Positions 1 to 44,512 of a stretch of DNA of 64,000 nt are shown here, in pieces. This DNA comes from Ignavibacteria bacterium (GTDB lineage: Bacteria > Bacteroidota > Ignavibacteria > Ignavibacteriales > SURF-24): contig JAAXKQ010000001.1 in the NCBI GenBank assembly GCA_025612245.1, forward strand, positions 1-64,000, written 5' to 3'. The notes under the pieces are model-generated. The model worked only from the letters and a program-made list of their open reading frames with translations, did not search any database and was not told the origin of the DNA. The translations under genes were made by a program, and so were the position numbers. Positions within the stretch are counted from its first letter, which is position 1. Each line of letters starts with the position of its first letter.

Positions 1-55
1 ACAACACGGACCTCTTCGATAAAGAGACTATTGAAAGGATGTTCAGGCACTATGA
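1..55 (+). repeat. Left-edge copy of a block also found in NRPS gene 5
   Basis: Bases 1–55 are identical to 29086–29140, the end of the second condensation domain of NRPS gene 5. The match stops at base 56 and must continue left beyond the window or begin near its edge. A related but diverged copy lies at about 14550–14610 in NRPS gene 3. Confidence 0.8.
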
Positions 56-10008: not shown

Positions 10009-10074
10009 AGTTCAGTCCCGGCAGAAAGAAGTACCACATTATCAGTTTAATGAACGTGAATGGAGAAAAGCTCT

Positions 10075-13000
10075 ATGGCAGACATTCTGAATATCTTAAA
10101 CTCTCTTTCAACCGAGAAGAGGGTTTTACTGGAAAAGAGGCTCAGGGAAAACGGCAGCCAGTACAACATTTTCCCACTGTCTTTTGCACAGCAGCGAATG
10201 TGGTTCATAAATCAGATGAACCCGGAAAGTACAGCCTATAATATTCCTGCCGCAGTTGAGCTTACGGGTGCACTGAATCTGGAGGCGCTGGAAAGAAGCA
10301 TAAATGAGATTATAAACAGGCATGAAATTCTCAGAACCGTTTTCCGTGTCTTTGACAGCCTCCCGATGCAGATAATTCTGCCTTTTACGCCGAAAAAGCT
10401 GAAAGTAACGGATTTAAGCGGCATCAGTTATTCTGAAGGGAAAAATGCCGCGCTAAGACTAATTGAAAATGAAAAAGAGCACGCGTTCGACCTGGTTGCG
10501 GGACCTTTGTTTTTAAGCCATCTTTATAAAATTGCCGACGGGAAATATATCCTCTTCCTTTTAATGCATCACATTATCACAGACGGATGGTCGATTGACA
10601 TTTTTATCCGTGAACTTGGAATACTTTATGAAGCCTTCATTAACAATTTACCTGCTGATCTGCCCCCATTGCCCGTACAGTATGCCGATTTTGCGGTCTG
10701 GCAGAAAAAATGGATGGAGGGTGAGGTTAAACATAAGCAATTGGATTACTGGAAGAAAAAGCTCTCTGAACTTCCGGCTCCCCTAAGGCTTCCGGGAGAA
10801 ACGGCTCTAGGAAAAAGTCACAGAGAGGAATGTACCGAGAGGTCTCTTTTTCTGCCTGAAAGGTATTTGGCTGAAATAAAGAAACTAAGCGCCCTTGGGG
10901 GAACGACAAACTACATGGTGTTTCTGGCTATCCTGCAGGTGCTCCTTTTCAGGCACACAAGGCAGAACGATTTCTGCATCGGCACCCCGGTTGCAAACAG
11001 GAACAGAAGTGAAATTGAAGGCCTGATAGGTTTTTTTGTAAACACGCTTGTGCTCAGATCAGTAATAGACGAGGAACAGACGTTTCAGGAATACCTCAGG
11101 GAAGTCAGGAAAACCTCAGTTGAGGCTTATGCAAACCAGGACCTACCGTTTGAAAAGCTCGTTGAGGAATTATATCCCGGGCGGGACAAGAACAATTCAC
11201 CGTTTTTTAAGATCATGTACGTTCATGGAAGCAATCTGCACTCAGGACTTGAATTGTCGGGAGTTAAGATATCCCCACTGGAGATCAAAAGCGAAAAGAC
11301 AAAGTATGACCTCACTTTTACAGTAGCAGAAGACCATGGTAATGGTCTTACCGTAACTTTTACTTATATGAGCGATCTTGTTCCCGATCAGTCAATTGAC
11401 TATCTGCTGAGGCACTTCCACGTTCTGCTGGACGAGGTCATCAGTAATCCGTCAAAAAAGATCCGTGACTTATCCATAATGACAGAAGAGGAATTAAATA
11501 AAATTATTTTCTCGTGGAATGACCGTTATTATGGCATAAAATCTGACAAAGAACCATTTCCTCGCACATTTGAACGTCAGGCCCGTCTAGTGCCGGAGAA
11601 CCTTGCGGTTTCAGCAAACGGAAGGCACCTTACATACGCAGAGCTTAATTCAAGGAGCAACAGGCTCGCACGCTTTCTTATAAAAAAAGGTGTGGCTCCG
11701 GAATCGATGGTAGGAATATGTACTGCCAGGTCAGTCGATATGATTGTTGCAATCATTGCCGTAATGAAAGCAGGAGGGGCTTATCTGCCCTTGGACCCAT
11801 TCTATCCTAAAGACAGGTTTTCCTACATTCTTGAAGATGCAGGTGCACGGATACTGATAACGGAGGAATCATTGTTAAAGGAACTGCCCGAAAGTAGCTG
11901 CAAGCTGATCTGCATCGACAGTGACTGGGTGGAGATCTCGAAAGAAAGCGATCTTAATCCTGAGGTTATGGTAGACATGCAGAATGCAGCCTATGTAATT
12001 TATACTTCCGGATCTACTGGCAAGCCAAAGGGTTCCATAATACAGTACGGCTCGCTCTGCAATCTGCACAACATACTTGAACACTGCTTTTTATCAGGAT
12101 ACACGCGTGAAAAATTCAGGGTCAGCCTGAATACGACAATAATGTTCGATGCCTCTGTAGTTCAGCTGCTTTTTCTCCTTTCGGGCCACAGCCTGTACAT
12201 TGTTCCCGAAGAGATTAGAAAAGACATACACGAACTTGCAAATTTCGTGAGGGAGAATAAACTTGACGTCCTGGATAGTGTCACCGGAATTCTCAGGATC
12301 CTGATCGAAGAAAAACTATTTGAGGGTGAAGGGAAACCACGCATGGTGCTCACCGGGGGAGAAGCTTTTGATGAGGTAACCTGGCGCAAACTTGGCAGGA
12401 TACAGGGAACGGAGTTCTGCAACATGTACGGACCCACGGAATGTACCGTTGAGGCTGCAATGTGCAGGGTCAGCCTTCATCCGGAAAGCCCTTCGATCGG
12501 GCGCTCCCTTCCAAATGCACCGGTCTATATACTTGACAGGAATTTTCATCCCGTTCCGGTCGGAACACCGGGTGAACTTTTCATTGGCGGCATTGCTGTT
12601 GGAAGGGGATACCTGAAAAGACCCGAGATGACGGCGGAAAAGTTTATCCCGGATCCTTTTGCATCCGGGGGCAGGCTTTACAGGACGGGGGATTTGGTCA
12701 GGTATAATTTTGACGGGACTATTGATTACCTGGGGAGGCTGGACCACCAGGTGAAAATGAGGGGCTTCAGGATAGAGCTTGGTGAGATTGAATCGGTTAT
12801 AAGGAAGTTCCCGGCAGTAAAGGAAGCCGTGGTGGCATTGAGGGAAAATGGAAACGGGAAATATCTCTGCGGATACCTTGTCCCAAAGAATGGCTCAGGG
12901 TTGAACATGGCTGAAATAAGGGAGTTTTTGAAAAAAGAGCTCCCGGAATATATGCTCCCTTCTGCCTTTATGACAATGAATACGATACCCTTGACCCCGA

Positions 13001-16000
13001 ACGGGAAAATTGACAGGAAATCCTTGCCGGAACCCCGGGCTGAGGACCCCGAAAGCAAGATACGCTTACTTGCGCCCCAGACTGCGACAGAAGAAATGGT
13101 GTGCGGAGTAATGGCAGGCGTTCTGAACAGAAAGGAAGTGGGTGTAAATGAAAGCTTCTTTGACATCGGGGGGCATTCATTGCTGGCGGCACAGGTAATC
13201 TACAGGCTCCGTGAAATATTCCGGATAAAGCTGCAGCTAAAGGAGATATTCGACTTCCCGAGTGCCCGTGCTCTTGCAGAGAGGATAGAAAAGGCCAGGA
13301 AATCAAGTGCAGGCATTTTTCAGGAACCCATCAGCCGCGCCTCAAGAGAGGAAAATCTGGCATTGTCCTTTGCACAGGAAAGGCTCTGGTTCTTGAGCCA
13401 GCTGAGCCCGGAGAGTACGGCTTATAACGTTCCGGAAGCTCTCAGGATTTCAGGCAAAATTAGTCCTGAAATGCTCCAAGAAAGCTTTAATATAATTGCA
13501 AGGCGGCATGAAATCCTGAGAACGGTTTTTATAACTCTTGAAGGCAAACCTTTTCAGAAAATTATGCCGGAGTTTAAGGTACCTCTGCCCGTAATTGAAG
13601 CCTTAGGCTTAAGTCCGGAAGAACAGGAGAGGTTTATTGAAGAATTCATTTCAAAAGAGGTCGATAAACCGTTCCTGCTGGATACGCTGCCCTTATTCCG
13701 CGCCATATTGATCAGACTGTCCGAGGAGGAAAGTGTCCTTATACTGACATTCCACCATATCATAACAGACGGATGGTCGTCCCGGAAATTGTTCAACGAG
13801 TTGATGAATAACTACAGTTATCTTGAAAGGGGGGAAAAGCCCGCCTTCTGCGAGCTCCCGGTTCAATATGCAGACTATGCCTCATGGCAGAGGCAGAATT
13901 TTACGGGTGAAAACCTGAAAAGGCATATAGAATACTGGAGGGGAAAACTAAAAGACAGTCCGCAGTTTCTTGAGCTTCCAGTAGACAGGCCGCGTCCTCA
14001 CGTTCAGAGCTACAACGGAAGCTTTATCAGCTTTTTGCTGTCCAAAGAAGTGAGCGATTCCGTAAAAAAGATAGATAGAAATTACGGCGTTACCTTATTT
14101 ATGTCCTTGCTCTCGGTTTTCCAGGTGCTGCTCTTCAGGTATTCCAGACAGAATGATATTTTAATCGGGACACCGATTGCAAACAGGAACAGGGGGGATA
14201 TCGAGGATTTGATAGGCTTTTTCGTAAATATCCTCGTCCTGAGAGTCCATGTTACGGACGGAATGAAATTTTCCGACCTTCTAAGGCAGACGAAGGAAAC
14301 TGCACTGGAAGCTTATACTTATCAGGACCTTCCCTTTGAAATGCTCTTAGACGCCCTGCAACTGGAACGCTCAATGAGCTATACGCCTTTGTTCCAGGTG
14401 ATGTTTTCAGCGGAGAATATGCAGACAGATGAAAATATTGAGGATAACAGCATAGTCGTGCAGCAGCTTGAAATACCTGCAAATACGTCGAAGTACGACA
14501 TCTCTCTTTCTGCTGTGGAAGAAAAGGATGGCCTGAGGCTGGCATTTGAGTACAATACGGATCTCTTTGATAAAGAGACCATGGAAAGGATGTTCAGGCA
14601 CTATGAAAGGATTCTGGAGAGCATAATAGACAATCCGGAGCTGAGGATCAGGGATATAGGTCTGCTCAGTAAAGAAGAGGAAAAAAATGCAATAGAGGCG
14701 CTTACGGGTAACTTGAAGTGCAATTCCCTTGCCTCAGACAGGCTTAGCCCCTTACTCTTAAAAGAGCATTCAACAAAAGAAATCTTCAGGAGGTGGAATT
14801 CCATGGAATCTGAAGAAAGCTCTCCAAAGCTTTTTTCGGAAATATTTGAAGAACAGGCAGCAAAGTCCCCGGATGAAATAGCCGTAGTAACTGAAGCCGG
14901 AAGCCTTACTTATTCAGAGCTAAATAAAAGGGCCAACAAGCTTGCCCGTTACCTGAGGAGGAAGGGCGCTGGTCCTGATGCAATTACAGGAATACTCCTT
15001 GGCCGGAATCCCAACCTGATTACTTCAATTCTTGGCATTATGAAGTCCGGGGGAGGCTACCTCCCCCTAGACCCGGTCTACCCGAAAGGGAGAATTGAAT
15101 ACATACTTAAGGATGCGGGTGTTAGAACACTTATCACTGAAGAAGCCTTGATAAAAGAGCTCCCGGCGCTCAGCTGTGAAATAATACTAATTGACCGCGA
15201 TTGGGATTTGATTAAACTTGAAGAGGATGATAACCTTGAGGCGGATATTTCGCCTGAAAACATTGCATACGTGATCTATACCTCGGGCTCCACGGGTAAA
15301 CCCAAAGGATCAGTAATACAGCACAGGAGTCTTTATAATTATTACCGCATAACCGGGGGCTTATACTCCAAATATATCCGTTCGGGACCGGTAAAGGTGG
15401 CAATGAACACAACTATTATGTTTGACGGCTCCATACTGCAGCTGATGTTTTTACTATTTGGACACACGCTTTATCTTCCGCCCGAGAATATAAGACGCGA
15501 CGGGCTTTCTTTGGCTGAATATATTTATAATAACAGAATTGACATACTGGACTGTGTGCCTGCACTCCTTAGAGCCTTCATGTCAGGCGGATTATTCAAT
15601 AAAAGCTCATGGAAGCCCAAACTGGTAATTACTGGCGGTGAGGCACTGGATGAGGCGCTGTGGAAAGAGCTGTGCTCTGTTGAAAAGACTGACTTCTTTA
15701 ATGCATACGGCCCCACCGAGTGCACGGTTGACGCTGCAATATGCAGGTTGAAGGACTATCCTGAAAAAGTAACCATTGGAAAACCCCCTCTGAATGTAAG
15801 AATATTTATACTGGACGGTGCGCTGAACCTTCTCCCAATTGGAGCCATTGGAGAGCTCTTTATAGGCGGAATATCGGTTGGAAGGGGATACCTGAACAGG
15901 CCGGAACTGACGGCAGAGAAGTTCATCCCCGATGCATTCAGCGATATAGAGGGCTCAAGGCTCTACAGGACGGGAGACCTGGCAAGGTATAAGCCCGACG

Positions 16001-18051
16001 GGACAATAGAGTTCATGGGAAGAAGTGACAACCAGGTAAAGCTAAGAGGCTTCAGGATTGAGCTCGGGGAGATCGAAGAGGTCTTAATGCAGCATGAAAT
16101 GGTAAATAGTGCAGCCGTTATACTGAAGGAAAGAAAAGGCAGGAAGTACATTGCATCGTATGTTACATTAAGAGACACATCAACAGGCAGCTTGGATAAA
16201 GCACATTCAGATGAGATTCGTGAGTTCCTGAAAAAACAGCTTCCGGAGTACATGATCCCGACCTCAATTATAATACTGAAGGAAATGCCTCTTCAGCCAA
16301 GCGGCAAGATTGACCGCAGGGCTCTTCCGGAGGAGGTGAAGGGAAGCACCCCCGAAGAGGAACTGGTGCCAAAGAGCGTCAAAGAGAAAATACTCCTTGA
16401 AGTCTGGAAAGAGGTACTTGGAGTAGAAAAAATATCTCTTAACGATAACTTCTTTGAAATTGGCGGAGACTCCATTCTGGCAATTCAGGTCGTGGCCAGG
16501 GCAAGGGAGAAGGGAATTAAGATTCAGCCGCTGAATTTATTCCAGCACCAGACTATCCCGGAACTGGCGCTTCAGGTTTCAGATTCGTCTGAAGAAAACC
16601 CAAATGAAGAGGATTATTCAGATGCCGGTATAGAATTGACACCCGTTCAGCAGTCATTCTTTGAGCAGGATCCGGAGCAAAGAAACCACTGGAACCAGTC
16701 GGTTTTCTTTGAGACAAGCGACAGGGTCGATTTACAGGCACTCAAAGAAATAATTAAATCCGTCATTCGTCATCATGACATTCTGCGCTCGGTCTTTATA
16801 AGCGAAGGCGGCAGGTGGAAGATGCGTGTTAAGGCTATGGAAGAAGATCTGCCTTTGGATTACTTTGACCTGACCGAATTAAGTCCGGAGCAAGTGAAGC
16901 CTGAAACCGAATCAAAGATTTTGGACGCTCAAGGCAGCCTCAACATTGAAAATGGCCCTGTAATAAAATTCGCTTACTTTAAGCTCAGTGAGCCGGGGAA
17001 AGATAAACTTTTGATAGCAGCCCATCACCTGGTAATTGACGTCGTATCGTGGCGCATACTACTGGAAGACATACTGACTGCTTACAGCCAGGTAAGGCAA
17101 AATGAACCCGTTTTACTGCCGCCAAAGACTACGTCTTATAAAAAATGGAGTGAATTTCTGGGAAAATATTCAAGGTCAGTGGAATCCGGAAAAGAGGCGG
17201 AATACTGGCTGAAACAAGCTTATTACAAGTGGACGCCAATATTAAGGGACTATCCGGACGAAAAAGGCCGGGAGAAGGATTCCCTGGAGGTTACTGCATC
17301 ATTGAACAATGCCGATACGCTCTTTCTTACACATGAAGCCCCGAAGATGCTTCATGCCAATTTGCCTGAAGTCCTGCTTACCGCACTGGTAAGAGCATAT
17401 TCATTCTGGTCGGAAAAAAGGACTCTTATGGTTGACATGGAAGGGCATGGCAGGGAAGTCCTATTTGAAAACTGCGACCTTTCCAGAACGGTCGGATGGT
17501 TTACAAGCATTTATCCCGTGCTGCTGGATCTGAAGACTTCAGTCTATCCTTTGGAAGCCTTAACCGAGGTCAAAGAGCAACTCCGGGGTGTCCCGCATCA
17601 CGGGATAGGATTCGGAATATTAAAATATTTATCAGATGACGGCCAGGTAAGGGAAAAATTAAATTCACTGCCTCAAAGTGAAATTTCTTTTAATTACCTG
17701 GGACTTCTGAATCAGTTCGTGGAGGAAGAAAATCAGGTCTTCAGACCCGTGGACAATAATAAAGTGCATGACAGGGGGCCGCTTAATTCTTTGAGGTATC
17801 TGATCGACATTATATGTTTTGTCTCCGGCGAACGCTTTCAGATGCAGATGAGGTATAGCCGGAAGGTTTTCAGGAGCGACAGGATACAAAGGCTTTCGGA
17901 GCTCTTTATAGAAGAGCTGAAGCTTATCCTTGAAAGCTGTAAAAACGGAAATGTTGAAATTACCGGTTCCGACTTCCCGCTGGCGCAGTTAAACCGTGAA
18001 AAATTTGACAAGGTGCTGAACCGATTAAACAAGAAAACATCAAGGGCTTAA
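10075..18051 (+). CDS. NRPS modules 4 and 5: C-A-PCP-C-A-PCP-E
   Basis: Two-module synthetase ending in an epimerase. From ATG 10075: an N-terminal helix-like docking stretch, C1 about 34–470 (HHIITDGWS), A1 about 495–985, PCP1 near 1032 (GGHSL), C2 about 1095–1560 (HHIITDGWS), A2 about 1586–2080, PCP2 near 2133 (GGDSI), E about 2187–2658. Hand-read codes: A1 DAVDLGMVEK and A2 DGLDIGAVDK. Both share Asp278, Gly301 and an acidic residue at 331 with Gln/Glu-type domains. The E motif reads HHLVIDVVSW, with Val where Gly is usual; EGHGRE is intact. An ATG at 10060 adds five residues but has no ribosome site, while GGAGA lies eight bases before 10075. It follows gene 2 after 66 bp and is one base from gene 4. 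Confidence 0.95.
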   Translation: MADILNILNSLSTEKRVLLEKRLRENGSQYNIFPLSFAQQRMWFINQMNPESTAYNIPAAVELTGALNLEALERSINEIINRHEILRTVFRVFDSLPMQIILPFTPKKLKVTDLSGISYSEGKNAALRLIENEKEHAFDLVAGPLFLSHLYKIADGKYILFLLMHHIITDGWSIDIFIRELGILYEAFINNLPADLPPLPVQYADFAVWQKKWMEGEVKHKQLDYWKKKLSELPAPLRLPGETALGKSHREECTERSLFLPERYLAEIKKLSALGGTTNYMVFLAILQVLLFRHTRQNDFCIGTPVANRNRSEIEGLIGFFVNTLVLRSVIDEEQTFQEYLREVRKTSVEAYANQDLPFEKLVEELYPGRDKNNSPFFKIMYVHGSNLHSGLELSGVKISPLEIKSEKTKYDLTFTVAEDHGNGLTVTFTYMSDLVPDQSIDYLLRHFHVLLDEVISNPSKKIRDLSIMTEEELNKIIFSWNDRYYGIKSDKEPFPRTFERQARLVPENLAVSANGRHLTYAELNSRSNRLARFLIKKGVAPESMVGICTARSVDMIVAIIAVMKAGGAYLPLDPFYPKDRFSYILEDAGARILITEESLLKELPESSCKLICIDSDWVEISKESDLNPEVMVDMQNAAYVIYTSGSTGKPKGSIIQYGSLCNLHNILEHCFLSGYTREKFRVSLNTTIMFDASVVQLLFLLSGHSLYIVPEEIRKDIHELANFVRENKLDVLDSVTGILRILIEEKLFEGEGKPRMVLTGGEAFDEVTWRKLGRIQGTEFCNMYGPTECTVEAAMCRVSLHPESPSIGRSLPNAPVYILDRNFHPVPVGTPGELFIGGIAVGRGYLKRPEMTAEKFIPDPFASGGRLYRTGDLVRYNFDGTIDYLGRLDHQVKMRGFRIELGEIESVIRKFPAVKEAVVALRENGNGKYLCGYLVPKNGSGLNMAEIREFLKKELPEYMLPSAFMTMNTIPLTPNGKIDRKSLPEPRAEDPESKIRLLAPQTATEEMVCGVMAGVLNRKEVGVNESFFDIGGHSLLAAQVIYRLREIFRIKLQLKEIFDFPSARALAERIEKARKSSAGIFQEPISRASREENLALSFAQERLWFLSQLSPESTAYNVPEALRISGKISPEMLQESFNIIARRHEILRTVFITLEGKPFQKIMPEFKVPLPVIEALGLSPEEQERFIEEFISKEVDKPFLLDTLPLFRAILIRLSEEESVLILTFHHIITDGWSSRKLFNELMNNYSYLERGEKPAFCELPVQYADYASWQRQNFTGENLKRHIEYWRGKLKDSPQFLELPVDRPRPHVQSYNGSFISFLLSKEVSDSVKKIDRNYGVTLFMSLLSVFQVLLFRYSRQNDILIGTPIANRNRGDIEDLIGFFVNILVLRVHVTDGMKFSDLLRQTKETALEAYTYQDLPFEMLLDALQLERSMSYTPLFQVMFSAENMQTDENIEDNSIVVQQLEIPANTSKYDISLSAVEEKDGLRLAFEYNTDLFDKETMERMFRHYERILESIIDNPELRIRDIGLLSKEEEKNAIEALTGNLKCNSLASDRLSPLLLKEHSTKEIFRRWNSMESEESSPKLFSEIFEEQAAKSPDEIAVVTEAGSLTYSELNKRANKLARYLRRKGAGPDAITGILLGRNPNLITSILGIMKSGGGYLPLDPVYPKGRIEYILKDAGVRTLITEEALIKELPALSCEIILIDRDWDLIKLEEDDNLEADISPENIAYVIYTSGSTGKPKGSVIQHRSLYNYYRITGGLYSKYIRSGPVKVAMNTTIMFDGSILQLMFLLFGHTLYLPPENIRRDGLSLAEYIYNNRIDILDCVPALLRAFMSGGLFNKSSWKPKLVITGGEALDEALWKELCSVEKTDFFNAYGPTECTVDAAICRLKDYPEKVTIGKPPLNVRIFILDGALNLLPIGAIGELFIGGISVGRGYLNRPELTAEKFIPDAFSDIEGSRLYRTGDLARYKPDGTIEFMGRSDNQVKLRGFRIELGEIEEVLMQHEMVNSAAVILKERKGRKYIASYVTLRDTSTGSLDKAHSDEIREFLKKQLPEYMIPTSIIILKEMPLQPSGKIDRRALPEEVKGSTPEEELVPKSVKEKILLEVWKEVLGVEKISLNDNFFEIGGDSILAIQVVARAREKGIKIQPLNLFQHQTIPELALQVSDSSEENPNEEDYSDAGIELTPVQQSFFEQDPEQRNHWNQSVFFETSDRVDLQALKEIIKSVIRHHDILRSVFISEGGRWKMRVKAMEEDLPLDYFDLTELSPEQVKPETESKILDAQGSLNIENGPVIKFAYFKLSEPGKDKLLIAAHHLVIDVVSWRILLEDILTAYSQVRQNEPVLLPPKTTSYKKWSEFLGKYSRSVESGKEAEYWLKQAYYKWTPILRDYPDEKGREKDSLEVTASLNNADTLFLTHEAPKMLHANLPEVLLTALVRAYSFWSEKRTLMVDMEGHGREVLFENCDLSRTVGWFTSIYPVLLDLKTSVYPLEALTEVKEQLRGVPHHGIGFGILKYLSDDGQVREKLNSLPQSEISFNYLGLLNQFVEEENQVFRPVDNNKVHDRGPLNSLRYLIDIICFVSGERFQMQMRYSRKVFRSDRIQRLSELFIEELKLILESCKNGNVEITGSDFPLAQLNREKFDKVLNRLNKKTSRA
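15949..16504 (+). repeat. 556-bp block shared with NRPS gene 1 (copy 2)
   Basis: Partner of 1413–1968, spanning the end of the second adenylation domain and its carrier protein. By eye 554 of 556 bases agree. Divergence starts abruptly after GCAA at 16504, inside the carrier-protein helix that follows the Ser site. Confidence 0.9.
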
Positions 18052-18052
18052 A

Positions 18053-21000
18053 ATGAACAATATCGAAGACATCTATCCTCTTTCACCAATGCAGAAGGGT
18101 ATGCTTTTTCACAGCCTGCTGTCTTCCGAAAAAGGAGTTTATATTGAGCAGACGAGCTGTACTTTCCAGGGGAAAATGGACATAAGTGCCTTTAAGTATG
18201 CGTGGGAAAAAGTTGTCGAACGGCATTCCATCCTGAGAAGTGCCTATGTATGGGAAGATGTGGATGAGCCCTTGCAGATAGTGTTTAAGTCAGTTGAACT
18301 GCCTTTTAAGGTTTTTGACTGGCAGAACATTGCAGATAAGAAAGTGAGGCTGGAAGAGACGCTGAGGCAGGAGGTGGAAGAAGGATTTGACCTGGAAACT
18401 GCTCCGCTAATGAAACTGGTTATGATTAAGGCGGACGCCGAGACGCATTACTTCGTTTGGACTCAGCACCACGTACTCTTCGACGGCTGGAGCGCACAGA
18501 TAATCATTAAAGAGGTATTTGAAATCTATAATGCCCTGATAAATAAAAGCAGCATTCAACTTAACGCCGCCCGTCCTTTCAGGGACTATATTTCCTGGCT
18601 TCAAAGACAGGATATCCATAAGGCTGAAGAATACTGGAGGAATTTGCTTCGGGGCCTGAGCGGCACTACTTCATTAAGACCTCATGCCTCTCAAAAAAAG
18701 GACGGAGCTTACTTTAGAAAACGCGTGGATATAGATAAGGAGATTTCAGTAGCTGCCCTTGCTTTCTGCAGGAACAACAGGCTTACTGTAAACACACTTT
18801 TTCAGGGGCTCTGGGCCTTTATACAGGGGGTATATACGGGGCAGGATGACATACTCTTCGGTTCTACCGTTTCCGGAAGACCCGCAGAGCTGCCGGACAT
18901 AAATTCCACGGTGGGGCTTTTTATCAATACACTGCCGGTAAGAATTAAGATTGATCATGAAATGAACGTTGCCGACTGGTTAAGAGATATCCAGATTCAG
19001 CAGGCCGAGCAGAGGAAATATGAGTATTGCTCTTTAACAGATATACATGGCTGGAGCCAGATACCGCGGGAGGTGCCACTTTTTGAAAGCATTATTGTAT
19101 TTGAAAACTATCCCGTTTCCGCGGCTTTAAGTGCTCAGAAAGGGAGTATTGAGATTAAAGACGTAAAGTCTCATACGAGGACCAATTATCCCCTGACAAT
19201 TGCCATTGGAGCAGCAGGAGAGGAAATTTCAATTGAGATGGCTTTTGATGAATCTTATTTTGACCATGATGACATTGAAGCACTCTTTTTACGCTTTAAG
19301 GTTCTGCTCTCTGAAATTTCCACAATTGCCGAAAAGAAGCTGAAGGAAATAAGCGTCCTCTCGGACGTGGAAGAAAACAGGATTTTAAGAGAATTCAGCC
19401 AGGGGAAGCAGCTTAGCCTTGAGTATAGCTCTATACCCGAATGCTTTGAAGCCGTTGCTGCCATGTATGGGGATTTGACGGCCTGCTATAAAGACGGCGT
19501 TGAACTCAGCTACAAGGAGCTCAACAGTAAGGCAGACCTGCTTGCAAGGCTTCTGCGTTCAAAAGGTATAGTCAGAGAGGAAGTAATAGGAGTAATGGCG
19601 GAGAGGTCGATAGAGATGGTGACGGGGATCATGGGGTGTCTGAAGTCCTCTGGGGCATTTCTGCCGATTGACCCATACTATCCTGAGGAAAGGATAAGCT
19701 ACATGCTGGAGGATTCAAAGGCAGGGCTGATACTTACACAGAGCCGTCTTTTGGATAAGGTTCCCGCTTCCTGGTTGGATAAGGTGGTCTTACTGGACAG
19801 TGAGGAAGCTTATTCCCATGAAGAAAGCAACGGGGAAGTAAAACCATGTCCTGAATTAAAGTCATATCCTGAAGTAATAATATATCCTGAAAGCCTGGCC
19901 TACTTAATCTACACGTCGGGATCAACCGGGAAGCCCAAGGGCACCATGCTCAGCCACCGGGGAGTCGTTAACCTCTCGCAAGTGCAGAGGGAGGCTTTCA
20001 GGCTATTCCCGGGAGAAAGGATACTCCAGTTCTCCTCCCTCAGCTTTGATGCTTCGGTATGGGAGATATTCATGGCGCTCTTAAACGGGGCCACATTATA
20101 CCTGTGCAGCAGGGATACGGTAGTCTCGGGAGAAAAGCTGAGGGATTACCTGAAGAGTAACAGAATAAACATCCTTACAGTCCCGCCATCGGTGCTGTCG
20201 TATCTGCCGGATGAGCTGTCACTGCCGGATCTTGAGGTACTGGTAACGGCAGGTGAGGCCACATCGTGGAGCCTCTTTGAGAAGTGGGGTCATGGAAGGA
20301 GGTATTTCAACGCTTATGGTCCAACGGAGGCCACGGTCTGCACAACGCTTCAGGAGTGCAGGACTGAGCAGAAGAGTGGGAATTCACAGACTCCTCCGAT
20401 CGGAAGGGCAATTTCAAACGTGAGGACATACGTACTGGACGACCGGATGCAGCCGGTCCCGGTTGGTGTAGCCGGTGAGCTATATATAGCAGGAAGTGGG
20501 CTTGCAAGGGGCTACCTTGGCAAGCCGGACCTGACGTCAGAAAAGTTCTTACCCGACCCGTTCTCATCAGAGAAAGGGAGCAGGCTCTACAGGACGGGAG
20601 ACTGGGTGAGATACCTGAAGGACGGGGAGATTGAATTCCTGGGAAGAATGGACAGGCAGGTAAAGCTAAGGGGCTTCAGGATAGAGCTCCAGGAAATAGA
20701 GTCACAGATCATGGCATTTCCCGGCATCAGCCAGGCAGCCGTCCTTCTTAAGGAGGATAAGACTCACGAGAGGAGTTTCCTGGTAGCTTACCTGGAGACA
20801 AAGGATGAGGAGTTTGACTCATCCAGATTGCAGCAGTTCCTGAAATGGAAGCTCCCCGAGTACATGCTTCCTTCTTCCTTTACGAGGCTTGAAGTTATGC
20901 CCCTTACCACTAGTGGCAAAATTGACAGGAAGAGCCTTCCTTTTCCCGTCATAAATCAGGAGGCCGTTCAGGAAAAAAGGCGGAAAAGCGTGACCGAAGA

Positions 21001-24000
21001 AATACTGGCGAACATTTGGGCCGATATACTGAAGCTGGAAAATGTAAATCCCGGTGATAACTTTTTTGAGCTCGGGGGGCATTCACTCCTGGCAACGCAG
21101 CTTATTTCAAGGATCCGTGACGCCTTTGGAGTTGAAATTCCTTTCAGCATACTTTTTGAAGAAAAGAAGCTTTCGGAGATGGCCGGAAGAATTGATCGCA
21201 TAGTCAGGCAAGATAAGGAAATTCCGGATAAACCGGTTAAATGTGAAGTAACAGGTAGCATACCCCTTTCGTTCCCGCAGCAGAGACTATGGTTTTTAGA
21301 TAAGCTTCAGCCCGGTATGACGTCCTACAATATTCCATCTGCAATAAAACTCCGGGGGGAAATAAACGCAGGGCTTCTTTGCGAGGCCGTAGATATTGTT
21401 TCAATGCGCCACCAGGTGCTCAGGACCGTCTTCAGGGAAATTGACGGGCAGCCTGTGCAGGCAATTAAGGACAATTACAGGACGGATATAAAAATTGTAA
21501 ATATAAAGGGAGAAACAGAAGAAAATAAATCAGAAGAAGTAAACGGCATTATGGATGCTGAAATTTCAAGGCCCTTTGACTTAAAGGAGGGACCTCTCTT
21601 CAGGATTCATATCTTAATTCTTTCCAAAGATGAATGCATTGTGCTGTTTGTCATTCACCACATCATTGCCGACGGATGGTCAATAGCCATACTAATACAT
21701 GAAATTGCTGCTGCCTATGAAGCGCTAATAAAGAAAAAAAATCTTTCTCTACCGGAATTAAACCTGCAGTACTCGGATTACTCTATATGGCAGAAAAAAA
21801 TGTATGAACAGGGAAAATTCGGGGCGCAGCTTAATTACTGGAAAGAGAAGCTGAGCAATGTCCCGCAGGTAATCGGGCTTCAGACAGACTACCCGAGAAA
21901 ACCCATACTTTCGACCAGCGGAAATACCATTACAGATATTTTAGAAGAACCTCTTCTTAAGGAATTGCTGGCTTTAAGCCGGAAGGAAGGTGCGACACTG
22001 TTTATGACACTGTTAGCCGCCTTTAACGTGCTTTTGCACAAATATTCGGGGCAAAATATCATTTCCGTCGGAGCTCCCGTTGCAGGCAGGGTCAGAACAG
22101 AAATCGAAAACCTGATCGGATTTTTTGTCAATAATATCGTACTGATAACTGAATTTGAACGCGGCATGACCTTTAAGGACCTCTTAAAAAAGGTAAGGAC
22201 AGTTTCCCTGGAAGCATACGCAAACCAGGACGTGCCTTTTGAAAAGGTGGTTGAGGCAATTGCACCGGTAAGGGACTTAAGCCGCTCTCCGTTGTTTCAG
22301 GTCATGTTTGTTTTCCAGAACTTCCAGGCAAGGGAGTCTGCCCCGGAGGATTTGAAGATTTCTTATTACCCCCTTAGGAGCCAGGCTTCCAATTTCGACC
22401 TTTCAATGGTATTAAACGAATCCGAAGAGGGCTTATTGATGGCGGCGGAATACAATTCGGATCTTTTTAAGGCTGAGACAATTGAAGGAATGATCTCCCA
22501 TTATAAAAATATTATTAGCTCGGTTCTTGCAGATCCTGAAATAAATATCGATGACCTCAAGGTGCTGAGCCCTGCGGAAGAGGATAAAATCCTTAATAGA
22601 TGGAACCATACGGCCAAACAGTACTCATCTTCCAATTTAATTACCGGAAGGTTCGATGAAATAGTTAAGGAAAATCCGGATGCCGATTCGGTTATTATGG
22701 CAACTTCCCAGGGTGAAATCACAGGAAAATTAACCTATTCGGACTTAAATTTTCGTGCAGATCGACTGGCTTTATTTCTGCGTTCAAAAGGTATAGTCAG
22801 AGAGGAAGTAATAGGAGTAATGGCGGAGAGGTCGATAGAGATGGTGACGGGGATCATGGGGTGTCTGAAGTCCTCTGGGGCATTTCTGCCGATTGACCCA
22901 TACTATCCTGAGGAAAGGATAAGCTACATGCTGGAGGATTCAAAGGCAGGGCTGATACTTACACAGAGCCGTCTTTTGGATAAGGTTCCCGCTTCCTGGT
23001 TGGATAAGGTGGTCTTACTGGACAGTGAGGAAGCTTATTCCCATGAAGAAAGCAACGGGGAAGTAAAACCATGTCCTGAATTAAAGTCATATCCTGAAGT
23101 AATAATATATCCTGAAAGCCTGGCCTACTTAATCTACACGTCGGGATCAACCGGGAAGCCCAAGGGCACCATGCTCAGCCACCGGGGAGTCGTTAACCTC
23201 TCGCAAGTGCAGAGGGAGGCTTTCAGGCTATTCCCGGGAGAAAGGATACTCCAGTTCTCCTCCCTCAGCTTTGATGCTTCGGTATGGGAGATATTCATGG
23301 CGCTCTTAAACGGGGCCACATTATACCTGTGCAGCAGGGATACGGTAGTCTCGGGAGAAAAGCTGAGGGATTACCTGAAGAGTAACAGAATAAACATCCT
23401 TACAGTCCCGCCATCGGTGCTGTCGTATCTGCCGGATGAGCTGTCACTGCCGGATCTTGAGGTACTGGTAACGGCAGGTGAGGCCACATCGTGGAGCCTC
23501 TTTGAGAAGTGGGGTCATGGAAGGAGGTATTTCAACGCTTATGGTCCAACGGAGGCCACGGTCTGCACAACGCTTCAGGAGTGCAGGACTGAGCAGAAGA
23601 GTGGGAATTCACAGACTCCTCCGATCGGAAGGGCAATTTCAAACGTGAGGACATACGTACTGGACGACCGGATGCAGCCGGTCCCGGTTGGTGTAGCCGG
23701 TGAGCTATATATAGCAGGAAGTGGGCTTGCAAGGGGCTACCTTGGCAAGCCGGACCTGACGTCAGAAAAGTTCTTACCCGACCCGTTCTCATCAGAGAAA
23801 GGGAGCAGGCTCTACAGGACGGGAGACTGGGTGAGATACCTGAAGGACGGGGAGATTGAATTCCTGGGAAGAATGGACAGGCAGGTAAAGCTAAGGGGCT
23901 TCAGGATAGAGCTCCAGGAAATAGAGTCACAGATCATGGCATTTCCCGGCATCAGCCAGGCAGCCGTCCTTCTTAAGGAGGATAAGACTCACGAGAGGAG

Positions 24001-24523
24001 TTTCCTGGTAGCTTACCTGGAGACAAAGGATGAGGAGTTTGACTCATCCAGATTGCAGCAGTTCCTGAAATGGAAGCTCCCCGAGTACATGCTTCCTTCT
24101 TCCTTTACGAGGCTTGAAGTTATGCCCCTTACCACTAGTGGCAAAATTGACAGGAAGGCGCTTGACGGAATGGATATGGCAGTTAAAGCTAATAACTCCG
24201 AATACGTGGAACCAAGAACAAAAGTTGAAAAAGAGGTCGCGGAAATCACTAAAGAGCTCTTAAAAGCCGACAGAGTTGGAATGTGTGACAATTTCTTTGA
24301 GCTCGGGGGCCATTCACTTCTGGCCTCACAGTTTGTAAGCCGCATAAGGGAGGCAGCGGGAATTGAAGTTCCTTTGCGCCTGGTTTTTGAAAAACCCATT
24401 TTGGCCGACTTATCCCTGGAAATAGAGCTGCTTGGAAAAGGAAATGGAGGTAAGAAGGATGAAGCGATTAAAAGCGTGTCAAGGGATTCCTATCGCATAA
24501 TGAAATCGGATTTAATGAAATAA
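18053..24523 (+). CDS. NRPS modules 6 and 7: C-A-PCP-C-A-PCP with duplicated A domain
   Basis: Two-module synthetase. C1 residues 1–440 (IYPLSPMQKGML start, HHVLFDGWS), A1 about 461–960, PCP1 near 1011, C2 about 1071–1500 (HHIIADGWS), A2 about 1529–2035, PCP2 near 2088, tail to 2156. C1 follows an epimerase-ending subunit and is inferred to be of the DCL type. Both adenylation domains carry the hand-read code DAWTVAAVCK, one residue from Phe DAWTIAAVCK, so two aromatic residues (Phe) are predicted. About 460 residues of A1 and A2 are identical, and the underlying 1382 bp are the same base for base. The N-terminal 90 or so residues of each A domain and all C and PCP domains differ. AGGG lies seven bases before the ATG. 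The gene starts one base after gene 3. Confidence 0.95.
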   Translation: MNNIEDIYPLSPMQKGMLFHSLLSSEKGVYIEQTSCTFQGKMDISAFKYAWEKVVERHSILRSAYVWEDVDEPLQIVFKSVELPFKVFDWQNIADKKVRLEETLRQEVEEGFDLETAPLMKLVMIKADAETHYFVWTQHHVLFDGWSAQIIIKEVFEIYNALINKSSIQLNAARPFRDYISWLQRQDIHKAEEYWRNLLRGLSGTTSLRPHASQKKDGAYFRKRVDIDKEISVAALAFCRNNRLTVNTLFQGLWAFIQGVYTGQDDILFGSTVSGRPAELPDINSTVGLFINTLPVRIKIDHEMNVADWLRDIQIQQAEQRKYEYCSLTDIHGWSQIPREVPLFESIIVFENYPVSAALSAQKGSIEIKDVKSHTRTNYPLTIAIGAAGEEISIEMAFDESYFDHDDIEALFLRFKVLLSEISTIAEKKLKEISVLSDVEENRILREFSQGKQLSLEYSSIPECFEAVAAMYGDLTACYKDGVELSYKELNSKADLLARLLRSKGIVREEVIGVMAERSIEMVTGIMGCLKSSGAFLPIDPYYPEERISYMLEDSKAGLILTQSRLLDKVPASWLDKVVLLDSEEAYSHEESNGEVKPCPELKSYPEVIIYPESLAYLIYTSGSTGKPKGTMLSHRGVVNLSQVQREAFRLFPGERILQFSSLSFDASVWEIFMALLNGATLYLCSRDTVVSGEKLRDYLKSNRINILTVPPSVLSYLPDELSLPDLEVLVTAGEATSWSLFEKWGHGRRYFNAYGPTEATVCTTLQECRTEQKSGNSQTPPIGRAISNVRTYVLDDRMQPVPVGVAGELYIAGSGLARGYLGKPDLTSEKFLPDPFSSEKGSRLYRTGDWVRYLKDGEIEFLGRMDRQVKLRGFRIELQEIESQIMAFPGISQAAVLLKEDKTHERSFLVAYLETKDEEFDSSRLQQFLKWKLPEYMLPSSFTRLEVMPLTTSGKIDRKSLPFPVINQEAVQEKRRKSVTEEILANIWADILKLENVNPGDNFFELGGHSLLATQLISRIRDAFGVEIPFSILFEEKKLSEMAGRIDRIVRQDKEIPDKPVKCEVTGSIPLSFPQQRLWFLDKLQPGMTSYNIPSAIKLRGEINAGLLCEAVDIVSMRHQVLRTVFREIDGQPVQAIKDNYRTDIKIVNIKGETEENKSEEVNGIMDAEISRPFDLKEGPLFRIHILILSKDECIVLFVIHHIIADGWSIAILIHEIAAAYEALIKKKNLSLPELNLQYSDYSIWQKKMYEQGKFGAQLNYWKEKLSNVPQVIGLQTDYPRKPILSTSGNTITDILEEPLLKELLALSRKEGATLFMTLLAAFNVLLHKYSGQNIISVGAPVAGRVRTEIENLIGFFVNNIVLITEFERGMTFKDLLKKVRTVSLEAYANQDVPFEKVVEAIAPVRDLSRSPLFQVMFVFQNFQARESAPEDLKISYYPLRSQASNFDLSMVLNESEEGLLMAAEYNSDLFKAETIEGMISHYKNIISSVLADPEINIDDLKVLSPAEEDKILNRWNHTAKQYSSSNLITGRFDEIVKENPDADSVIMATSQGEITGKLTYSDLNFRADRLALFLRSKGIVREEVIGVMAERSIEMVTGIMGCLKSSGAFLPIDPYYPEERISYMLEDSKAGLILTQSRLLDKVPASWLDKVVLLDSEEAYSHEESNGEVKPCPELKSYPEVIIYPESLAYLIYTSGSTGKPKGTMLSHRGVVNLSQVQREAFRLFPGERILQFSSLSFDASVWEIFMALLNGATLYLCSRDTVVSGEKLRDYLKSNRINILTVPPSVLSYLPDELSLPDLEVLVTAGEATSWSLFEKWGHGRRYFNAYGPTEATVCTTLQECRTEQKSGNSQTPPIGRAISNVRTYVLDDRMQPVPVGVAGELYIAGSGLARGYLGKPDLTSEKFLPDPFSSEKGSRLYRTGDWVRYLKDGEIEFLGRMDRQVKLRGFRIELQEIESQIMAFPGISQAAVLLKEDKTHERSFLVAYLETKDEEFDSSRLQQFLKWKLPEYMLPSSFTRLEVMPLTTSGKIDRKALDGMDMAVKANNSEYVEPRTKVEKEVAEITKELLKADRVGMCDNFFELGGHSLLASQFVSRIREAAGIEVPLRLVFEKPILADLSLEIELLGKGNGGKKDEAIKSVSRDSYRIMKSDLMK
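19551..20932 (+). repeat. 1382-bp exact repeat, copy 1 (adenylation domain of module 6)
   Basis: This block is identical to 22776–24157 at a constant offset of 3225. It starts inside the A-domain N-terminal region (LRSKGIVREE) and ends right after GKIDRK, so it carries nearly the whole substrate pocket. Flanks on both sides differ at once. Confidence 0.93.
22776..24157 (+). repeat. 1382-bp exact repeat, copy 2 (adenylation domain of module 7)
   Basis: Second copy of the 19551–20932 block in the same orientation. The boundaries fall at the same codons of the A-domain fold, consistent with domain replacement by recombination rather than tandem duplication of a whole module. An assembly artefact is less likely because the flanking unique sequences differ. 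Confidence 0.93.
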
Positions 24524-24605
24524 AAGAAAGAGAATAGTTTGGGGTTTAGTTAAAGGATATTAAAATGGTTGCTGCCTGGAAAATAAAGCAATAGGAGACT
24601 GCCTG

Positions 24606-27600
24606 ATGAATAGGAATGATACCGGTATGCAGAAAGAAGAAAATATTGAAAGTAATGAAGAAGTTTATGTTTTTCCTGCCTCATATGCACAGCAGAGGCT
24701 GTGGTTTTTGGACCAGTTTGAGCCGGGCAGCCCTTACTATAACATCCCTTCAGCAATGAGGATAAAGGGAAAATTCAATATTGCGGCATTTAAGAGCGCA
24801 ATTGAGGAAATTGCCAGGCGCCACGAATCTCTAAGGACTAATTTCTCTACCGTGGAGGGGAAACCTGTACAGGTAATTTCCAAAGGCGTTAAGGTCCCCT
24901 TTGACATTATTGACCTTAAAAGCCTGGCAGAGGCGGAAAAAGGGCCTGAAGTAAGCCGCCTTCTGACAGAAAAAGCCAAGCATTCATTTAATCTTTCCAG
25001 CGAACCATTGATTAGAATTACGGTGCTTGAGATTGCCCCTGAAGACCATGTGGTAATGGTGGTAATGCACCACATAATTTCCGATGGCTGGTCGATGGGC
25101 GTTCTTGTGCAGGAAATGTCGGCCCTTTATAACGCTTATTCTTTCGGCCGCCCCTCGCCTTTAGACGAACTGACGCTCCAGTATGCGGATTACTCACTCT
25201 GGCAGAAGGAATTCCTGCAGGGTGAAAGGCTGGAAAGGCAGCTTGACTACTGGAAAGAAAAGCTCGGGGATGCATCACAGTACCTTGACCTGCCTTTTGA
25301 CCGGCCGAGGCCCGCGGTATGGACAAATAACGGCTCGACTCTGTCCAGGACAATTCCGCAGGCGACCTTTGACGCCTTAATGGAATTCAGCCGGTCGGAA
25401 AGAGTTACCTTATTTATGACCTTAATGGCGGCCTTCCAGGTGCTGCTCCACAAGTACTCCTCTCAGGAGGATATCAGCGTCGGGACTCCGGTTGCAAACC
25501 GCACACGCAGGGAAGTGGAAGGCATTATAGGGCTATTTATCAATACAATTGTAATTAGAACCGGAGTATCCGGAAGAGATACATTCCGAAGCTACCTTCA
25601 GAAAGTAAGGTCAGCTACGCTTGAAGGCTATGAAAATCAGGACCTGCCATTTGAGTTCCTGGTTGAAAAGCTGCAACCGGGCAGGGATATGAGCTATCAG
25701 CCCTTTTTCCAGGTTATGTTCATTCTGCAAAACCTTCCCTTGAACTCGCAGCCCTTTAACGGCCTGGAGCTTTCAACGGCCGAGGTTAGTATGGGCACCT
25801 CTACTTTTGACATTACGCTTACTGTAGCCGAAACTTTTGAAGGGCTGGATTTGACCATGGAATATAATACAGATCTTTTTGACGGAAGTACCATAAGCCG
25901 GATGCTGAAGCACTATGAAAACCTGCTTGATAACATTTTACTGCACCCTGAGGCACTGATAAGTAACCTGGGACTGATGGACGAGGAAGAAAAAAACAGG
26001 GTCCTTTATGAATGGAATAATTCAGAAAGGGAGTTTGAAAAGTGCAACTCCATTCACAGTCTTTTTGAACGGCAGGCAAAAATTAACCCGGGCAAAATTG
26101 CAGCTGTTTACGAGGAAGAGGCGATATCATACGGGGAGTTAAATGAAAAATCGAACCGGCTTGCACGCAAATTAAGAAAGCTGGGCTTGGGACCGGAAGG
26201 CATTGCCGGAATATGTATCGATAGGTCGCTCGAAATGATAATTGCCGTTCTGGGAGTGCTGAAAGCAGGCGCAGCTTACCTCCCCCTGGATGCCTCTTAC
26301 CCTGAGGACCGCCTGAAGTTTATGCTTACGAACGCGGATGTCGGCCTGCTGATTACACAAAGCCACCTGGAAGAAGCCATACCATTTCATGAAGGGCCGG
26401 TCGTCTATATTGACAAAGACTGGGAAGAAATTTCCCGTGAAAATAGCCTTAATCCAGCAATTGCGCTGGATGAAAGCAACCTGGCTTATGTCATCTATAC
26501 TTCCGGTTCTACGGGAAAGCCAAAAGGCACGATGGTTTCACACGCGAGCCTTATAAATGCATATATGGCCTGGGAAGAGTCGTATGAACTTACAACACGC
26601 GCCACAACTCACCTACAGATGGCAAGCTTTTCCTTTGATGTTTTTGCGGGCGACTGGACGCGAGCCCTGTGCTCGGGAGGAAAACTTGTAATTGCTCCAA
26701 GGGAAATACTGCTCGAAGGCGAAAAGCTCTACAGCCTGATGAGGAAAGAAGGGGTAAATATAGCAGAATTTGTTCCGGCTGTCCTCAGGAATTTGATCGA
26801 TTACCTCGAAGAAAGCAGGAAGAGCCTCGAGTTCTTCAACCTCTTAATTGCAGGCTCTGACGTCTGGTACTCGGGTGAATACAAGAAATTTCAAAAATTT
26901 TGCGGCAGGAATACGCGCCTGATTAATTCCTTCGGCCTGACAGAAGCCACCATTGACAGCTCATTTTTTGAAAGCACAAACCTTGAGCTCCCGGATGAGC
27001 GCCTTGTTCCTATAGGGAGGGCGTTTTCAAATGTGACTTTATATATACTGGACAAGAATTTCCGGCCCCTGCCCCCCGGCCTCAAAGGTGAGCTTTATGT
27101 CGGCGGCAAAGGGCTCTCAAGAGGATATCTGAAGCTGCAGGAGGTAACGGCCGAAAAATTTATTCCTGACCCTTTTTCTGGAATTCCGGGCATGAGGCTT
27201 TACAGGACGGGTGACCTGGCGTGCTATCTGCCCGACGGGAATATCGAATTTTTGGGAAGAATGGATAACCAGATTAAGTTAAGAGGGCTCAGAGTTGAGC
27301 TGGGTGAAATTGAAACTGCCATCCTGGAATTTGAAAACATAAAGAGCGCGGCCGTAATTGCAAGGGAAGACATACCGGGGGATAAGAGGATAGTGGCCTA
27401 TTACGTGACACGGGACGGAAAAGCTATTCTGACTTCCGCGCTGAAGCAATTTCTGTCCGAAAGGCTTCCTGAATTCATGCTCCCCTCGGCATTTGTCATG
27501 CTCTCCGGGTTGCCGATTACGCCGAATGGGAAAGTTGACCGGAGATTTTTACCCGCGCCCGACAAAAATGAACTTCTGAAAGAACTTGAGTCCAACTATG

Positions 27601-30600
27601 TCGCCCCGCGTTCAGTCGTAGAAGGCGTCCTTGCCGCAATATGGTCCGATATACTGAAAATTCAGAAAGTCGGCGTAAATGACAACTTCTTTGAGCTCGG
27701 AGGCCATTCGCTCCTGGCTACACAGGTGATCTCAAGAATTAGAAATGCCTTTAAGCTGGAGATCCCTTTACGCAGCATTTTTGAAAACCCGACCGTAGCC
27801 AGGCTGGGCTATGTGGTTGAAAATGAAAAACTAAAGGAAACCGGGCTTATGAATAAGGCCGTCCTGCCTGCATCCCGCGGGGACAGCATTCCTTTATCCT
27901 TCGCACAGGAAAGGCTCTGGTTTTTGGACCAGCTTGAACCCGGTAATTCATTCTATAACATACCTGAAATTTACAGAATTAAGGGGAAGCTCGATAAGGA
28001 CATTCTTGAAGAAAGCTTAAATGAAATTCTAAAGCGCCATGAGATTTTGAGAACTTCCTTTTTCTCCTTGAACGGCAAGGCTAGGGCAGCAATAGCTCCG
28101 GAATTAAAAATTAAGATTAGTTTTACGGACCTGTCAATCTATTCTCTGGAAGAACAGGAAAAAATTATTGAGGCCAGGTCAACCGATGAGGCACAGGAGT
28201 ACATCCCCCTTGCAAAAGCTCCATTATTCAGGACTTCGCTTCTTAAGGTTTCTGAAGAAGAATATGTTGTTATTATGGTAATGCACCACATTATTACGGA
28301 TGAATGGTCATCTGCCATAATGTTAAAGGAAATAGCCCTTACTTATAATGCGCTGTCTTTAAGCACTAAGCCTTTACTTCCAGAGCTAAAGATCCAGTAC
28401 GCGGATTATGCCATCTGGCAGAGGGAATATCTTCAAGGAGAGAACCTGGAGCATCAGATGGAATACTGGAAAAGAAAGCTCACAGGAATACCCACTAGAC
28501 TCGAACTTCCCTATGACCACCCGAGACCACTGGTTCAGAGCTACAGGGGTGATTACATGAGCCGGGAACTGGATCAAAGAATGGTAAAACTCATAAGGGA
28601 GTCTGCGAGGCAATATGGAGTGACACTCTTCATGATGATGCTCTCGGTCTATGAAGTGCTCCTCTACAGGATGAGTAACCAGAATGACCTTGTAATAGGG
28701 ACACCCGTAGCCAACAGGAACAAAGAGGAACTGGAGCCACTGATAGGGTTCTTTGTCAACACGCTAGTAATAAGGAGTAACCTCGACGGCAGCATGAGGT
28801 TCCGTGAGCTCCTTCAAGAGACCATGCAGACCTCGCTTGAGGCATATACATTTCAGGACCTTCCCTTTGAGATGCTGGTCGATGCCTTGGAACCCGAGAG
28901 GACTCTCAGCCATTCACCCATTTTCCAGGTCATGTTTGCGCTGCAGAACGCTCCTGAAGAAGAATACGAGTTTACTGCGGACCTGAGGCTTACCCCATAT
29001 GAAGTGCACTCAATGACCTCAAAATTCGACCTTACCATGTTGATCTCGGACAAGTCGGAAGAGAGTATTTCAATGGCATTTGAATACAACACGGACCTCT
29101 TCGATAAAGAGACTATTGAAAGGATGTTCAGGCACTATGAGTTAATATTGGAATGCGTGCTAAAAAATCCTGACTCGATTCTTTCCGGCATCTCTCTTTT
29201 AAGCCGTGAAGAGGAAAGGGCGATACTGGAGAAAATGTCCGGCATAAATGCCTCACCATTCAGCCCCGGCGAAATGGTACACGTGGCATTTGAAAACACC
29301 GCCTCACTCATGGCCGGCAATACTGCACTGATATTTATGGGCAGTAAAATGACCTTCGGCGAACTGAACAGCCGAAGTAACAGGCTTGCGCATTACCTGG
29401 TGAAAAGAGGAATAGGTCCGGAAACTGTTGTTGGCGTTGCGCTCAGGAGATCACCCGAGCTTATAATCAGCCTTCTGGGGGTACTAAAAGCCGGGGGCTG
29501 CTACCTTCCACTGGATACAAATTATCCTGAAGACAGGCTGCACTATATTATTGCGGATTCAAACTTAAAACTGCTGATAACTGAAAAAGACTTGAGCTCA
29601 AAATTTGGCGCAGGCATGGCAGAAACCGTTCTTGTTGACCTTCAATGGAAGGAAATTGAACAAGAAAGCAGCCTGAACCCGGAGATACAAGGGCCCTTCC
29701 CTGATAACCTGGCATACATAATTTATACGTCAGGCTCTACAGGCAATCCCAAGGGAACGATGATCACGCACAAAAATCTCACAAACTACCTTTCCTGGTG
29801 CCAAAATGCCTATCCTCTGAGTGAAGAAACCGGGTCGGTATTCCACCTAAGCATTTCCTTTGATGCTGCCATTACCTCCATATATCCTGCCTTACTTTCA
29901 GGCACCCCTGTTAGAATAATACCAGAAGGTAAGGATATTTACCTGCTGGGTAAAGAGCTTATGGAAAGCGGAGCAACCGGCACACTTAAGATAACACCTG
30001 CTCACCTGGACATACTGGCCGAAAACCTCAGGAATGAAGCCTCAGATGGAAGACCAGCTGATGAAAAAATTAAGGTCGGGGCACTGGTAGTAGGAGGGGA
30101 GAACCTTACGGGTAAACAGATTGCCTTCTACCAGGATAATTATCCCGGGACATTAATATTTAATGAGTACGGGCCTACTGAGGCCACCGTGGGCTGCATT
30201 GTCCATGAAGCCTCCAGACATAAAACCGTGGGATCAGTCCCGATCGGTAGGGTGATACCGGGCGTATATGCCTGCATACTGGATGATAACATGAGCCTCG
30301 TTGGGGAGAATACTCCGGGTGAACTCTACATCGGTGGGCTTGGCATATCGAGGGGCTATCTTGCCAAACCGGAGCTTACGGCTGAAAAGTTCATCCCCGA
30401 TCCTTTCAGCGGCGTTCCGGGGATGAGGATCTATAGGACAGGTGACAAGGCAAAGCTCCTAAAAGACGGCAATATTGAATTCCTGGGCAGGCTTGACGGG
30501 CAAGTAAAACTGCACGGATATAGAATTGAGCCGGGTGAAATTGAGGCAGTTCTGAAGCAACACCCTGAGGTTAAAGAAGCACTCGTCTTGAAGCATGATT

Positions 30601-40740: not shown

Positions 40741-40753
40741 AATATTTAATTAA

Positions 40754-40793: not shown

Positions 40794-40795
40794 CC

Positions 40796-44487: not shown

Positions 44488-44512
44488 AATTAGATGGCTT
44501 GGTCTGATTAAT

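What the first reader, a model, noticed from the sequence alone, without database searches (positions are those of the whole stretch)
19551..24157. Exact 1382-bp copy of an adenylation domain in two successive modules
Modules 6 and 7 share an identical block that covers nearly the entire substrate pocket, while their C, PCP and A-domain edges differ. No synonymous change has accumulated, which points to very recent gene conversion. It would have set residue 7 equal to residue 6 and is a natural example of A-subdomain swapping with visible breakpoints.
Basis: seen in the sequence. Interest (0 to 1): 0.72.

Follow-up and report, generated by a model that had tools for sequence, protein, structure and literature searches.

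The report
Copied adenylation domain in peptide synthetase
In a bacterial assembly line that builds a 12-residue lipopeptide, one amino-acid-selecting domain has been overwritten by its downstream neighbour, and relatives show which copy was the source and that the same pair has been re-copied separately in a sister species; this is a clear new case of a known process.

Summary
The block runs from just after motif A1 to motif A10, so it is nearly the whole adenylation (A) domain, not a pocket subdomain. The modules are 8 and 9 of a 12-module lipopeptide synthetase whose first modules lie on another contig. Module 9's Phe-type pocket is conserved in the sister species and three more distant lineages, while module 8's pocket differs in all four. 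The donor is therefore module 9 and the acceptor module 8: residue 8 was made like residue 9. It is not a single event either. In the sister species (synonymous divergence >1.2) the same two A domains are independently homogenised, as 323-bp and 646-bp identical blocks that leave a ~305-bp different pocket between them. Other module pairs are homogenised in both genomes. Best reading: recurrent gene conversion (concerted evolution), pocket-overwriting here and pocket-sparing in the sister. Precedents: mcyB1/mcyC in microcystin synthetase and concerted evolution of NRPS clusters. Caveat: the assembly looks like a k=55 short-read graph, which can pop isolated SNP bubbles, so "no synonymous change" is not proven.

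The parts
18053..24523 (+).
   Evidence: ORF, Pfam domains, ortholog in sister genome G001 at 70% identity
19551..20932 (+). Acceptor copy: A domain of module 8, A1 to A10, overwritten by module 9 sequence
   Evidence: exact repeat; donor/acceptor from identities and trees
22776..24157 (+). Donor copy: A domain of module 9, Phe-type code DAWTVAAVCK
   Evidence: exact repeat; code; orthologous M9 pockets conserved in G001, G004, L062, L061
19971..20264 (+). Pocket segment of module 8 (approximate; corresponds to the ~305 bp that stay different in the sister species)
   Evidence: 73% DNA identity to G001 module 9 pocket against 60% to G001 module 8 pocket
1413..1936 (+). Second conversion block, module 3 A-domain C-terminal half; partner 15949-16472; 524 bp with 1 mismatch
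   Evidence: W_M3 and W_M7 group together in the C-terminal A-segment tree
15949..16472 (+). Partner of 1413-1936 in module 7
28387..29140 (+). Third repeat (754 bp as assembled), C domain of module 11; its other copy, in the C domain of module 3, lies in the gap between contig C30 and the start of this window
   Evidence: last 55 bp of C30 = 28387-28441 and window 1-55 = 29086-29140; homologous 678-bp block in G001
3..36464 (+). Modules 3 (part) to 12 of a 12-module lipopeptide NRPS, ending in a thioesterase
   Evidence: A-domain search, Pfam

Best explanation
The identical block is the product of RecA-type intragenic gene conversion between two neighbouring NRPS modules. Module 9's A domain (Phe-type pocket) was copied over module 8's A domain, from just after A1 to A10; tract ends coincide with where the paralogs stop being alike, and the C domains, linkers and PCPs stayed native. 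It is the latest round of recurrent conversion at this pair. An earlier M9-to-M8 copying in the genus ancestor gave module 8 an M9-derived scaffold. In the sister species the scaffold was re-homogenised while the module 8 pocket stayed different; in the window species the pocket was overwritten too, so modules 8 and 9 should load the same residue, predicted Phe. Shown: identity, boundaries, donor direction, independent homogenisation in two species. Inferred: the recombination enzyme, the substrates, and selection as the reason for the spared pocket.
For: Exact 1382-bp block with sharp edges. W module 8 pocket is 73% protein identical to G001 module 9 pocket and 56% to G001 module 8 pocket; dN 0.15 against 0.35. 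Pocket tree: W_M8+W_M9+G1_M9 99%, G1_M8 sister 99%; C-terminal A-segment tree: both M8 copies sit inside the M9-ortholog clade of G004, L062 and L061, 100%, away from those lineages' M8. Module 9 code is DAWT(V/I)AAVCK in the four lineages fully read and lacks only the last position in L061; module 8 codes are DACLVGAVCK, DAATIIGVGK, DASTIVGIGK, DAGYAVGIGK in relatives. Flanks (C8, T8, C9, T9) are orthologous in place between species, so this is not a module duplication. G001 has 323 + 646 bp identical blocks with a different ~305-bp pocket. Species dS >1.2 across the C, A-core and T domains, against 0 differences within the window block (<0.0094 per synonymous site, 95%).
Against: No reads were seen. 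The k=55 graph signature means isolated SNPs inside the block could have been popped, and no isolated SNP with 55 exact bases on both sides survives in any block of either genome. Only one congeneric genome exists in the collection. Pocket trees rest on ~100 residues. Whether conversion or double crossover with an incoming allele did it cannot be told.
Confidence: 0.83

Rival explanations
1. Assembly consensus: the two copies are very similar but not identical, and the short-read graph merged SNP bubbles, so the 'zero synonymous change' and hence the extreme recency are artefacts; the conversion itself is real but older. (A qualifier of the best explanation rather than a full alternative, so the confidences overlap.)
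For: Contig C14 starts, and contig C30 ends, with 55-bp pieces of the same 754-bp repeat, the sign of a k=55 graph. A 1382-bp repeat exceeds usual short-insert spans and can be passed by loop resolution. In eight blocks (~6.2 kb) of two genomes not one isolated SNP with at least 55 exact bases on both sides remains, as bubble popping would leave.
Against: Recent conversion gives the same picture. The 305-bp pocket difference was kept in G001's assembly (different genome, perhaps a different assembler).
Confidence: 0.3
2. Gross misassembly: module 8 really carries another pocket and the assembler walked the module 9 sequence twice.
For: The repeat is longer than short inserts; the module 8 pocket differs in the sister and outgroups.
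Against: A divergent ~305-bp branch is too long and too different for ordinary bubble merging; no other contig of the genome carries an orphan module 8-like A fragment; flanks and gene length match the ortholog.
Confidence: 0.06
3. Module duplication rather than conversion: modules 8 and 9 are a recent tandem duplicate.
For: Adjacent modules, same A sequence.
Against: C domains 22% and PCPs 50% identical within the window species; each flank is orthologous to the matching module in G001; same two-module gene there.
Confidence: 0.02
4. Conversion ran from module 8 to module 9.
For: None found beyond the identity itself.
Against: The pocket and C-terminal A segment of both copies belong to the M9 ortholog clade (99-100%); the M9 code is conserved in all five lineages.
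Confidence: 0.03

Closest known systems
mcyB1/mcyC A-domain conversion in microcystin synthetase (Fewer et al. 2007, PMC2174460)
   Same: Recurrent, independent overwriting between A domains of two modules of one cluster; tract spans A1-A10; C domains stay divergent (27%) while A domains reach 97% in one strain
   Different: Tract there runs into the middle of the T domain; here it stops at A10. Different lineage and product; here an outgroup-resolved donor and a pocket-sparing counterpart in the sister species
Concerted evolution of NRPS/PKS domains (Medema et al. 2014, PMC4256081)
   Same: Cluster-specific homogenisation of A and C domains by internal recombination; the model has functionally diverged domains escaping it
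   Different: That study used domain trees; here exact tract boundaries and a spared pocket within one domain are visible
Acore subdomain swaps (Crusemann 2013 hormaomycin, cited therein; Baunach et al. 2021, PMC8097286; Booth et al. 2022, PMC9205934; Calcott et al. 2020, PMC7486941)
   Same: A-domain recombination independent of C domains; hotspots either side of the pocket (A2-A4, A5) match the edges of the G001 pocket island
   Different: The window tract includes the Asub subdomain, which Baunach et al. find is usually kept native

Membership tests
Intragenomic A-domain gene conversion in an NRPS (mcyB1/mcyC type) | Near-identity confined to the A domain of two modules of one cluster, with divergent C domains | tested here: met
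   1382 bp at 100%; C domains 22%, PCPs 50%
Intragenomic A-domain gene conversion in an NRPS (mcyB1/mcyC type) | Phylogenetic discordance: converted segment groups with the donor module's orthologs, flanks with their own | tested here: met
   segment trees and flank identities
Concerted evolution | Paralogs within a genome more alike than orthologs between species, repeatedly | tested here: met
   W_M8=W_M9 and G1_M8=G1_M9 in the scaffold at species dS >1.2; homologous C-domain block of modules 3 and 11 in both species
A-subdomain (flavodoxin-like/Acore) swap | Exchange limited to the pocket-bearing subdomain with Asub kept native | tested here: not met
   Window tract extends to A10 and so replaces Asub. 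The G001 pocket island has such limits, but whether it is a swap or a spared segment is open
Very recent event | No substitution since the event in the real genome | tested here: inconclusive
   0 of 318.7 synonymous sites in the assembly, but the k=55 graph may hide SNPs
Phe-activating A domain | Specificity code of Phe domains | tested here: met
   DAWTVAAVCK, the code given for predicted L-Phe in PMC9866976
Phe-activating A domain | Measured activation of Phe | not testable with these tools
   needs an ATP-PPi exchange assay

The most novel reading that the evidence does not exclude
Two sister species form a natural paired experiment: the same pair of A domains is under continuing conversion in both, but in one the module 8 pocket is spared (identical scaffold on both sides of a ~305-bp different island) and in the other it is overwritten. 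If the island was kept by selection on the product, conversion supplies interchangeable scaffolds while selection edits only the pocket; the sister's module 8 code DACLVG-AVCK would then be a hybrid specificity, six residues from its own pocket and four from the converted segment.
Probability: 0.4. Interest if true: 0.55.

Novelty: new member of a known kind. Interest (0 to 1): 0.42.

Why it matters
NRPS engineers copy natural A-domain recombination boundaries. This case gives boundaries, donor and acceptor, and an untouched counterpart in a sister species with nearly the same scaffold limits, so the effect of replacing only the pocket or the whole A1-A10 unit can be compared in a natural context. 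It is also a warning: exact repeats in short-read NRPS assemblies may overstate identity.

Tried and rejected
The first genome-contig scan with the single protein gave nothing; the second, with the two-species alignment, gave eight loci, of which L061 (Bacteroidetes MAG) and L062 (Calditrichaeota MAG) carry recognisable M8-M9 modules. L064 (Archangium, single contig) has only short exact repeats. The G004 and G002 NRPS contigs read show no long conversion block. Module duplication was rejected from the flanks. The code DACLVGAVCK was not looked up in the papers and has no assignment here. The organism could not be named; T9SS sorting domains next to the cluster point to the Bacteroidota/FCB group.

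Full report
WHAT IS THERE. The window holds an exact 1382-bp direct repeat, 19551-20932 and 22776-24157, with no mismatch and abrupt ends. Both copies lie in one 2156-aa NRPS gene with two C-A-T modules. The block covers aa 500-960 and 1575-2035, from just after motif A1 to the A10 motif, thus nearly all of each A domain, including all ten specificity positions. C domains (22% identical), linkers and PCPs (50%) are different. A search of the whole genome finds no third copy.

WHERE IT LIES. The window begins at base 1 of contig C14 (461,695 bp). The first 55 bases equal 29086-29140, and contig C30 ends with the 55 bases 28387-28441. A 754-bp repeat therefore broke the assembly, and the overlap length suggests a k=55 short-read graph. 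C30 carries modules 1, 2 and the start of module 3; its first NRPS gene begins with an acyl-AMP-ligase-like domain and ACP, then C-A-T. With the ten modules in the window the line has 12 modules and ends in a thioesterase, the design of a dodecalipopeptide synthetase.

SISTER SPECIES. G001, the only other genome of the genus in the collection, has the complete line on one contig. Its module 8/9 gene is 70% identical in protein. NG86 dS between the species is above 1.2 across the C, A-core and T domains (two 20-residue linkers give lower, unreliable values, and the module 8 pocket is saturated). In G001 the same two A domains share identical blocks of 323 bp and 646 bp, with a different stretch of ~305 bp between them; that stretch holds specificity positions 235-301. 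The outer limits nearly match those in the window. Because the species differ so much at synonymous sites, the identity inside each genome cannot be old: each lineage has homogenised the pair on its own.

DIRECTION. Module 8 is DACLVGAVCK in G001, DAATIIGVGK in G004, DASTIVGIGK in L062, DAGYAVGIGK in L061, but DAWTVAAVCK in the window. The window's module 8 pocket is 73% identical to G001's module 9 pocket and 56% to G001's module 8 pocket. In trees of the segments, the C-terminal A segment of module 8 in both congeneric species sits in the module 9 ortholog clade (100%), and in the pocket tree W_M8, W_M9 and G1_M9 form a clade (99%) with G1_M8 as sister (99%). The donor is module 9. The sister's own pocket also descends from an M9-like copy, so at least one older copying probably preceded the species split. 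DAWTVAAVCK is reported as a predicted L-Phe code (PMC9866976); no activity was measured for either organism.

OTHER BLOCKS. The window has a 524-bp block with one mismatch between modules 3 and 7 (1413-1936, 15949-16472) and the 754-bp C-domain repeat of modules 3 and 11. G001 has a homologous 678-bp block in the same two C domains, a 1799-bp block between modules 6 and 10, and a 194-bp block between modules 6 and 7. The whole line is under patchy concerted evolution.

HOW SURE IS 'NO SYNONYMOUS CHANGE'. In the assembly 0 of 318.7 synonymous sites differ (95% bound 0.0094). However, k=55 graphs can merge isolated SNP bubbles (assembler knowledge of my own, not tested here). In all eight blocks of both genomes the only mismatches that survive lie within 55 bases of another mismatch or block edge. 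Recent conversion and bubble popping predict the same, so the age is open; the conversion itself does not depend on it.

COMPARISON. Fewer et al. 2007 (PMC2174460) describe the same process for mcyB1/mcyC: independent recombination of A domains over A1-A10 with divergent C domains. Medema et al. 2014 (PMC4256081) describe concerted evolution in NRPS clusters and propose that diverged domains escape it. Calcott 2020, Baunach 2021 and Booth 2022 map A-domain recombination to sites around the pocket. Including Asub, as here, is the less usual form in Baunach's set. The finding is a new, unusually well resolved member of a known kind.

WHAT IS INFERRED. Substrates, product, the enzymes that did the conversion, and selection as the cause of the spared pocket in G001 are inferences; an alternative for G001 is homogenisation of the whole domain followed by a pocket import.

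Noticed in passing
window 1-55, 28387-29140; G000:C30 35022-35076: The contig start and the end of contig C30 are the two edges of one unresolved 754-bp C-domain repeat, so C30 and C14 are neighbours and the missing join can be inferred.
   Followed up: yes
window 1413-1936 and 15949-16472: Second near-identical A-domain block (524 bp, 1 mismatch) between modules 3 and 7, sparing the upstream part of the A domains; module 7's code differs between the two species.
   Followed up: partly
G001:C18 (reverse-complement coordinates of 1-77000: 29757-31555 and 44194-45992): 1799-bp identical block over the C domain and the start of the A domain of modules 6 and 10 in the sister species only.
   Followed up: partly
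window A domains starting near 11578, 14815 and 33915 (modules 6, 7, 12): Specificity codes of modules 6, 7 and 12 also differ between the two species, while modules 1-4 and 9-11 are unchanged and module 5 differs by one position.
   Followed up: no
L062 and G004:C26 (L031): The codes of modules 9-11 (DAWT.AAVCK, DVGEIGSIDK, DATKVGEVGK; Phe-, Orn-, Asn-like) occur in the same order in a Calditrichaeota MAG and another genus, suggesting an old, widely shared lipopeptide family.
   Followed up: partly
window 39628-44487: Two proteins with T9SS type A C-terminal sorting domains just downstream of the NRPS, MFS exporter and phosphopantetheinyl transferase genes; they place the organism in the Bacteroidota/FCB group.
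   Followed up: no
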